This document shows, piece by piece, positions 6,186 to 7,249 of a DNA stretch of 25,664 nucleotides. The notes under the pieces were generated by a model. It was given only the letters and a program-made list of their open reading frames with translations. It was not told the origin of the DNA and did no database searches. Made by a program: the position numbers and the translations under genes. Source of the stretch: Helicobacter sp. (GTDB taxonomy: Bacteria > Campylobacterota > Campylobacteria > Campylobacterales > Helicobacteraceae); NCBI GenBank assembly GCA_029257755.1, contig JARIAP010000002.1:1-25664 (forward strand). The letters are read 5' to 3'. Positions within the stretch are counted from its first letter, which is position 1. Each line of letters begins with the position of its first letter.

Positions 6186-6247
6186 TTTATTAAGGAAATT
6201 AAATTTTTGGGATTTATATATGTTTTATTTAAATTAAAGGATATTAA

Positions 6248-7249
6248 ATGATAGTTAAATTAATAGGTGGTTTAGGAAATCAAATGTTTCAATATGCCTT
6301 TACTAAATCTTTAGAATCTAAGGGTTTTGAAGTTTTGCTTGATGCTAGTTTATATGCCAATAATACAATGTATAAAAGCGATATTAATGGGGTGGGGGGG
6401 GTAGTATCCACTCATACTAGTATTCGTAATTTAGAAATAATTGACTTTAATATTTCACTGCCTATCATAAATGATTTTAATTTTAATGAATATTTATTGC
6501 AATACAAAAAATTAAACAAACAAAATATATTTTATAGAATCTATAAAAATTTTATACCAGAAAAAATACAGAAAAAAAGAAAACAAATTTATTTTATTGA
6601 AGATATAGATTTTTTACAAAAATTTAGCAATATTAAAGAATTTAATCCATATTCTTATTTTGAAGGTTATTTTCAAAATATTATATATTTTAAAAATATA
6701 GAAGATATTATTAAAAAAGATTTTACACTCAAAAAACCATTATCAATCAATAACGCTAAGATAAAAGATAATATTATAAATACTAAAAATTCTGTATTCT
6801 TACATATTAGAAGAGGGGATTATTTAGCACATAATTCTATACATATTAATCTAGGTGCAACATATTATAATAACGCATTAAAAATTATTAAACAAAAATT
6901 AAGTGAGCCTTATATTTTTATATTTAGTAATGATATTAAATGGTGTAAAGATAATTTTTTACATTATATTAATGATGATATTAAAAAAAATATGAAATTT
7001 GATTTTATAGATGAAAATAATGAAGGCAATGCAATAGAAGAGATGGAATTAATGAGATCTTGCAAACATGCTATTATGGCTAATTCTACATTTAGCTTTT
7101 GGGCTGCGTATTTAATTGATAATGTAGATAAAATTGTTATTATGCCATCACAAATATTATATAATAGCAATTTGTTTATAATAGAAAATATACGCTTAAA
7201 AGATTGGATAGTAATTGATCATATTTGTGGAGATGTTAAATATCAGTAA
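6248..7249 (+). CDS. futC: Alpha-1,2-fucosyltransferase (GT11), poly-G phase-variable
   Basis: GT11-family enzyme transferring fucose from GDP-fucose to galactose, the last step making H-type 1/Lewis b/Lewis y-like antigens on lipopolysaccharide. Signatures: IGGLGNQMFQYAF at the N-terminus, the GDP-fucose motif HIRRGDY (residues 186-192), a YFEGYFQN segment, ANSTFSFWAAYLID and a closing region as in H. pylori FutC. At 333 residues it is slightly longer than H. pylori FutC (~300). Ribosome-binding site AAAGGATATTAAATG. A G8 tract (6394-6401) preceded by GGGGT lies at codons 49-52. As written the frame is ON; loss of one G gives TAG directly after the tract, gain of one G gives TAG after six further codons. 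The symbol is by homology to H. pylori; linkage specificity is inferred. Confidence 0.93.
   Translation: MIVKLIGGLGNQMFQYAFTKSLESKGFEVLLDASLYANNTMYKSDINGVGGVVSTHTSIRNLEIIDFNISLPIINDFNFNEYLLQYKKLNKQNIFYRIYKNFIPEKIQKKRKQIYFIEDIDFLQKFSNIKEFNPYSYFEGYFQNIIYFKNIEDIIKKDFTLKKPLSINNAKIKDNIINTKNSVFLHIRRGDYLAHNSIHINLGATYYNNALKIIKQKLSEPYIFIFSNDIKWCKDNFLHYINDDIKKNMKFDFIDENNEGNAIEEMELMRSCKHAIMANSTFSFWAAYLIDNVDKIVIMPSQILYNSNLFIIENIRLKDWIVIDHICGDVKYQ
6394..6401 (+). repeat. G8 homopolymer (contingency locus) in futC
   Basis: Eight consecutive G, with GGGG just before at 6389-6392, in a genome where G is roughly one base in seven. Slipped-strand mispairing at poly-G/C tracts is a well-known ON/OFF switch in Helicobacter and Campylobacter surface glycosylation genes. 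Confidence 0.85.

What the first reader, a model, noticed from the sequence alone, without database searches (positions are those of the whole stretch)
6394..6401. G8 tract makes the alpha-1,2-fucosyltransferase an ON/OFF switch
The sequence shows eight G at codons 49-52 of an intact GT11 gene. Removing one G puts TAG straight after the tract; adding one G gives TAG after six further codons, so both neighbours of this length are OFF. In H. pylori futC is phase-variable by a poly-C tract; here the tract is elsewhere in the gene, suggesting independent evolution of the same switch. The product would shape host-like fucosylated surface sugars.
Basis: partly seen in the sequence, partly recalled or inferred. 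Interest (0 to 1): 0.7.

Follow-up and report, generated by a model that had tools for sequence, protein, structure and literature searches.

The report
Slow G-tract switch in fucosyltransferase gene
A Helicobacter sugar-adding enzyme gene carries a short run of eight Gs at a spot where many related genes carry longer, changeable runs, so it is probably a slow on/off switch of a well-known kind.

Summary
In detail: G8 at 6394-6401 lies at codons 49-52 of an intact 333-aa GT11 gene, and one G fewer or more ends the frame at 51 or 57 residues. The genome is a 67%-complete Helicobacter-family MAG. A lone G8 is no excess in it (0.80 expected, 1 seen), but four G13 runs are. What makes the site credible is kinship: of 75 other GT11 loci mapped, 19 carry a G9-G15 or C12 run in the same N-terminal loop, and four near-identical relatives there have 10, 11, 12 and 13 Gs. 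The loop is a predicted turn between strands. So slipped-strand ON/OFF switching is likely. Parsimony does favour a separate gain here. The run is also interrupted, GGGG-T-GGGGGGGG, so it is probably a slow or partly locked switch. Switching in this species and the sugar made are unproven; there are no reads or isolates. A new member of a known kind.

The parts
6248..7249 (+). GT11 alpha-1,2-fucosyltransferase-like gene, 333 aa, intact (ON as assembled)
   Evidence: ORF; PF01531 E 1.6e-27; AF2 model, mean pLDDT 90.6, whose best Foldseek matches in the PDB are fucosyltransferases (POFUT2, Arabidopsis FUT1, POFUT1, FUT8, NodZ) at E 1e-6 to 1e-4 but low TM-scores, 0.36-0.51
6236..6241 (+). AAAGGA, likely ribosome-binding site, 6 bases before the ATG
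   Evidence: read from the sequence; not tested
6394..6401 (+). G8 run, codons 49-52
6389..6401 (+). GGGGTGGGGGGGG: 13-base block, G run interrupted once by T; encodes GVGG
   Evidence: the four longest runs of this genome are uninterrupted G13
6365..6427 (+). 'Site A': predicted strands 40-47 and 53-60 around a turn at 48-52 encoded by the G block (hairpin inferred)
   Evidence: AF2 model, block pLDDT 71 and 78 here, among the lowest of the model; the same stretch carries runs in 19 of 75 other GT11 loci
6402..6404 (+). TAG read after loss of one G
6418..6420 (+). TAG read after gain of one G
6803..6823 (+). HIRRGDY, residues 186-192, core GT11 motif
   Evidence: R188, G190, D191 invariant and H186, Y192 at least 90% in 73 aligned proteins

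Best explanation
The G8 run is a working but slow translational phase-variation switch. During replication the run gains or loses a G by slipped-strand mispairing, uncorrected because MutL-type mismatch repair is missing; the frame then ends at 51 or 57 residues, before the catalytic core, so the enzyme is OFF; a later slip turns it ON again. The run codes for the turn between two predicted strands, a place that tolerates a short glycine run, which would explain why it has repeatedly been used for repeats in Helicobacter GT11 genes. The enzyme probably adds fucose in alpha-1,2 linkage to a surface glycan. Shown: run, frames, family, same-site runs and length variation in relatives, no MutL match. 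Inferred: switching in this species, its rate, the tolerance of the turn, the glycan.
For: Frame behaviour. 19 of the 75 other GT11 loci mapped carry a G9-G15 or C12 run in the same stretch, and one more has (GA)11 there; in 18 of the 20 site-A loci, window included, an R-x-L-E-like motif follows within 80 bases of the run's start. Four relatives with 143-150 of 150 flanking bases identical on each side have runs of 10, 11, 12 and 13 G; one of the four is open, three are frame-broken. Own genome has four G13 runs against 9e-5 expected, three inside ORFs that are open, one in front of a CST-I sialyltransferase gene. MutL family PF01119 matched in 0 of 14 genus genomes, with 11 of 14 control genomes positive. 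C. jejuni rates for 8 Gs, derived by that paper's authors from earlier data: gain 4e-4, loss 4e-5 per division (PMC8224891 Table 2, passage); cj1139 is ON at G8 (PMC8437040, passage).
Against: It is the shortest run at the site apart from a G6 in one frame-broken copy (L171), and it is interrupted. Its two nearest relatives (C158 paralogue, G044:C98) have no run. About one G8 per genome is expected by chance. The gene is known from one MAG only (one member, one contig; the next proteins are the own C158 copy at 71% and one at 58%), so no length variant of it was seen. The rates come from another genus.
Confidence: 0.6

Rival explanations
1. Vestigial switch: a former uninterrupted run of about 13 G was split by one G-to-T change, leaving a G8 that hardly slips; the gene is now in effect locked ON.
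For: 12 of 13 bases are G, and the four longest runs in the genome are all G13, encoding GGGG in three ORFs; GVGG is one base from GGGG. In C. jejuni, breaking a poly-G run (one base changed in every G triplet) made switching undetectable (PMC8437040, passages). A G6 copy (L171) may also be a shortened run, and is frame-broken.
Against: No ancestor or intermediate was seen; neither nearest relative has a run; G8 still switches in C. jejuni (passages); the total of 13 could be coincidence.
Confidence: 0.22
2. Chance: an ordinary G8 in a glycine-coding turn, fixed in length, with no history as a switch.
For: 0.80 runs of exactly 8 expected in the genome, 1 seen; quick stops out of frame are common in the gene (128 of 283).
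Against: It falls in the stretch that carries runs in 19 of 75 other mapped GT11 loci, GGGG stands just before it, and only 21 of 20,000 synonymous recodings give such a run.
Confidence: 0.13
3. The assembled length is not the real majority length (MAG consensus of mixed lengths or of strains).
For: Assembly in 199 contigs, 67% complete; no reads available.
Against: The frame is open through the run with conserved GT11 residues on both sides; four G13 runs were assembled in the same genome.
Confidence: 0.05

Closest known systems
H. pylori futC, GT11 alpha-1,2-fucosyltransferase switched by a poly-C run (PMC2752801, passages)
   Same: Same enzyme family and same principle: a G/C run inside the ORF whose length sets the frame.
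   Different: Other GT11 lineage; run of G not C on the coding strand; in the N-terminal loop before R-x-L-E instead of after the G-Y-F motif; shorter and interrupted. No named H. pylori record was fetched; the site was read from unnamed family members (1.5-1.7 Mb genomes, taken to be the H. pylori group) and from H. japonicus L024.
Site-A GT11 genes of other Helicobacteraceae (G036, G037, G040, G041 and 15 further loci)
   Same: Same lineage in the tree (18 of the 19 were in it; L203 had no usable piece), same stretch of the gene; length differs between near-identical copies.
   Different: Runs of 9-15, uninterrupted; 18 of the 19 are frame-broken as assembled, the window copy is open.
Campylobacter jejuni cj1139 (wlaN), G8 = ON (PMC8437040, passage)
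   Same: Surface-sugar transferase switched by a G8 run.
   Different: Not a GT11 fucosyltransferase; switching measured there, not here.
H. canadensis phase-variable genes (PMC2823697, passages)
   Same: Helicobacter, G runs in ORFs with lengths differing among reads.
   Different: The paper's main text holds the word fucosyltransferase 0 times; the passages name a glycosyl transferase (HCAN_0101).

Membership tests
GT11 (Pfam PF01531) | Profile match over the whole domain | tested here: met
   E 1.6e-27, 97 bits against a cut-off of 23.9, profile 7-297 of 298
GT11 (Pfam PF01531) | H-x-R-R-G-D-Y core motif | tested here: met
   residues 186-192; R188, G190, D191 invariant and H186, Y192 at least 90% in 73 aligned proteins
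GT11 (Pfam PF01531) | Fucosyltransferase fold | tested here: met
   AF2 model; 28 of the 32 Foldseek matches with E up to 0.001 are fucosyltransferases, at low TM-scores; no sequence match in the PDB at E 0.01
GT11 (Pfam PF01531) | Alpha-1,2-fucosyl transfer | not testable with these tools
   needs an enzyme assay
Simple-sequence-repeat (translational) phase-variable gene | G/C run of at least 7-8 inside the early part of an ORF | tested here: met
   G8 at codons 49-52; cut-off of 7 used for Campylobacter (PMC6321876, passage)
Simple-sequence-repeat (translational) phase-variable gene | Neighbouring lengths end the frame early | tested here: met
   51 and 57 residues of 333
Simple-sequence-repeat (translational) phase-variable gene | Run length varies between reads or isolates | not testable with these tools
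   one MAG; protein known from one contig. Seen in four close relatives at the same site
Simple-sequence-repeat (translational) phase-variable gene | Host lacks MutL-type mismatch repair | tested here: met
   0 of 14 genus genomes match PF01119 (own MAG 67% complete), 11 of 14 controls positive
futC-type (poly-C after the G-Y-F motif) GT11 | Poly-C run at that site | tested here: not met
   no C run of 7 or more in the window; window gene lies in the other lineage

The most novel reading that the evidence does not exclude
The N-terminal turn of one Helicobacter GT11 lineage is a recurrent landing place for hypermutable repeats (G, C and GA units, gained several times), and the window's copy shows the switch being slowed in nature: a G13-like run split by one T, keeping the enzyme ON with a lowered switching rate. 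That would make GT11 a case where both the place and the speed of a contingency switch can be followed as evolving traits.
Probability: 0.35. Interest if true: 0.55.

Novelty: new member of a known kind. Interest (0 to 1): 0.4.

Why it matters
Phase-variable fucosylation is well studied in H. pylori futC. If this is right, a separate GT11 lineage spread over Helicobacteraceae uses the same principle at another place in the protein, perhaps because that turn tolerates a glycine run. The comparison of run site, unit and length across 76 loci gives a ready data set for asking how contingency switches arise and are tuned. For the single locus the result is ordinary.

Tried and rejected
Whole-genome count of runs as proof: rejected, because runs of exactly 6, 7 and 8 (20, 4 and 1) fall off much as a dinucleotide model predicts (31, 5.0, 0.80); only the G13 runs stand out.

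Conserved neighbourhood: 36 GT11 loci (34 with long flanks, plus contig C158 and part of C49) were searched for 17 window genes, GT11 among them. valS lies within 1.6 kb of GT11 in three (G048, G050, G052, another genus). serA is next to GT11 in G042:C24 (same genus, run at the second site), a weak serA match lies near G062:C12, and hypC lies about 8 kb from GT11 in G036; the window's serA and hypC are not next to GT11. The rest had no window neighbour, so orthology by position is not established.

Promoter or terminator signals around the gene: 14 promoter-like sites against 18.9 in shuffles, no terminator; uninformative. Sequence match to solved structures: none at E 0.01.

Literature: searches (15 papers; 1; 4; 10; 19, 10 listed; 5) showed no report of a run in this GT11 lineage; I saw listings and, for nine papers, the passages returned by 'find' (searches cover ten), no whole text and no supplement. 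Related reports there: H. bizzozeronii GT10 with a C20 run (PMC3234257); H. mustelae, one predicted fucosyl transferase and several homopolymer runs, gene lists in a supplement not seen (PMC2846917).

Excess of broken copies: 18 of 19 other site-A copies are frame-broken (P 0.005 if two thirds were expected), but the copies are related and some carry further damage (L203), so I draw no conclusion.

Limits of the counts: the 76 loci were taken from the listing, which was itself cut. 20 weaker regions were mapped later (19 gave a match); a few weak listed places were never fetched. These 20 are outside the tally of 76; distant GT11-like genes among them also carry runs, two in the N-terminal part (L265 near residue 52, L268 near residue 30) and others near residue 210-225 or after the gene. 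The automatic site labels disagree with mine for some loci: goes by raw residue number and puts 17 poly-C-site loci in its B group; one search looks for motifs and misplaces L151, L152, L153 and L198, where a motif was missed or a chance one was met. I placed these by hand. For the poly-C site 16 of 19 are borne out by a G-Y-F-like motif before the run; L195, L198 and L210 rest on position and tree.

Full report
What is there. The window is contig C137 of a 1.31-Mb, 199-contig genome, 67% complete; window GC is 26.7%. ORF 6248-7249 is a GT11 protein of 333 aa with the H-I-R-R-G-D-Y motif at 186-192. Its predicted fold (mean pLDDT 90.6) matches solved fucosyltransferases best (28 of 32 matches with E up to 0.001), though with TM-scores of about 0.3-0.5. 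The genome holds two more GT11 copies: C49 (44% identity, open) and C158 (74%), the latter frame-broken as assembled by a 32-base deletion.

The run. G8 is at 6394-6401, preceded by GGGGT. One G fewer or more ends the frame at 51 or 57 residues. Over both strands of the genome, runs of exactly 6, 7, 8, 9 and 13 G number 20, 4, 1, 1 and 4; a dinucleotide model built on the window expects 31, 5.0, 0.80, 0.13 and 9e-5. So G8 alone is no excess; G13 is. The G13 runs lie in a GT10 fucosyltransferase, a FkbM-type methyltransferase and a dynamin-like GTPase (all open frames), and in the leader of a CST-I sialyltransferase gene, 83 bases before its first ATG and inside a 33-codon ORF that ends just before it: a typical contingency-gene set. 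The G9 run lies in a 118-codon open stretch of no known kind.

Kin. Of 121 family genomes, 57 have a GT11 match. I mapped 76 loci from that listing, window and its two copies included. A G or C run of 8 or more lies inside the gene in 47 of 76: by my placing, 20 at site A (between the first ~35 residues and the R-x-L-E motif, window included), 2 before the G-Y-F motif (G042:C24, G038:C149), 19 after it (the poly-C site of the H. pylori-type lineage) and 6 in the last third; 9 more have a run only near the gene and 20 have none. Motifs bear out 18 of 20 at site A and 16 of 19 at the poly-C site. Among the 20 without, one has (GA)11 at site A (L154), one G6 there (L171) and one C7 at the poly-C site (L204). 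18 of the 19 other site-A copies are frame-broken as assembled. A quick tree of 75 C-terminal pieces puts 35 rows on one side (all 20 rows labelled poly-C site, no site A; support 92) and, on the other, 36 rows (18 site A, 2 of the second site, 15 without, the window; support 84) plus 4 odd rows; neither support reaches the 95 mark, and 32 of 72 inner branches are under 80.

Length variation. G036, G037, G040 and G041 share 143-150 of 150 bases on each side of the run but have four lengths from 10 to 13. This is the strongest evidence that the site is hypermutable. H. saguini passaged in mice also showed insertions and deletions in polynucleotide runs of surface-sugar genes (PMC7096620, passage; its gene table was not seen).

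The window's own case. Its two nearest relatives, C158 and G044:C98, have no run. On the tree, site-A runs need at least 6 changes with the window (36 rows) and 5 without it (35 rows), and still 6 if the GA and G6 copies are counted in, so the window's run was probably gained separately at the same loop. But window and C158 are mosaics, nearly identical near the start and again over much of the later half, and 55-75% alike in between, so gene conversion may blur this. The 13-base block, one base short of G13, in a genome with four uninterrupted G13 runs, suggests a longer run that was interrupted; no intermediate was seen.

Mechanism. The run codes for residues 48-52, the turn between predicted strands 40-47 and 53-60, among the least confident parts of the model (block pLDDT 71 and 78; blocks 91-110 and 191-200 are as low): a place that can carry a glycine run, as the open relative L148 shows. 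With no MutL match in 14 of 14 genus genomes, slippage should go uncorrected. For 8 Gs C. jejuni shows about 4e-4 gains and 4e-5 losses per division (PMC8224891) and a switching frequency of 0.004 for the G8 of cj1139 (PMC4965091). Breaking runs made switching undetectable there (PMC8437040). Hence: a slow switch, ON as assembled.

Limits. No reads, no second isolate, no sugar chemistry. gmd was found in 13 of 14 genus genomes, the miss being this incomplete MAG, so GDP-fucose supply is unconfirmed here. GT10 was found in 13 of 14, this MAG included.

Noticed in passing
G000:C194:3694-3706 (L138 2195-2207): GT10 alpha-1,3-fucosyltransferase gene of the same genome has an in-frame G13; in several genus members the GT10 profile match stops at positions 92-95 with a short frame, which hints at a shared run site there too.
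   Followed up: partly
G000:C31:581-593 (L134): G13 in the leader of a CST-I sialyltransferase gene, 83 bases before its first ATG and inside a 33-codon ORF that ends just before it: a possible promoter or leader type switch.
   Followed up: partly
   Followed up: partly
G000:C158:4106-5057 against window 6248-7249: Second GT11 copy, nearly identical to the window gene in patches and 55-75% alike between: likely gene conversion between copies; the C158 copy is broken by a 32-base deletion.
   Followed up: yes
L079 2876, 6328, 6747; L080 7, 2308, 2804: Two Gastranaerophilales MAG contigs carry six G runs of 9-14 near a GT11 match, at least one inside an ORF that looks like a GT2 glycosyltransferase by eye: repeat-based switching may occur in this group too.
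   Followed up: partly
L256 (G061:C1): Two GT11 copies in tandem, each with a run of 12 at the poly-C site and a frame break there.
   Followed up: no
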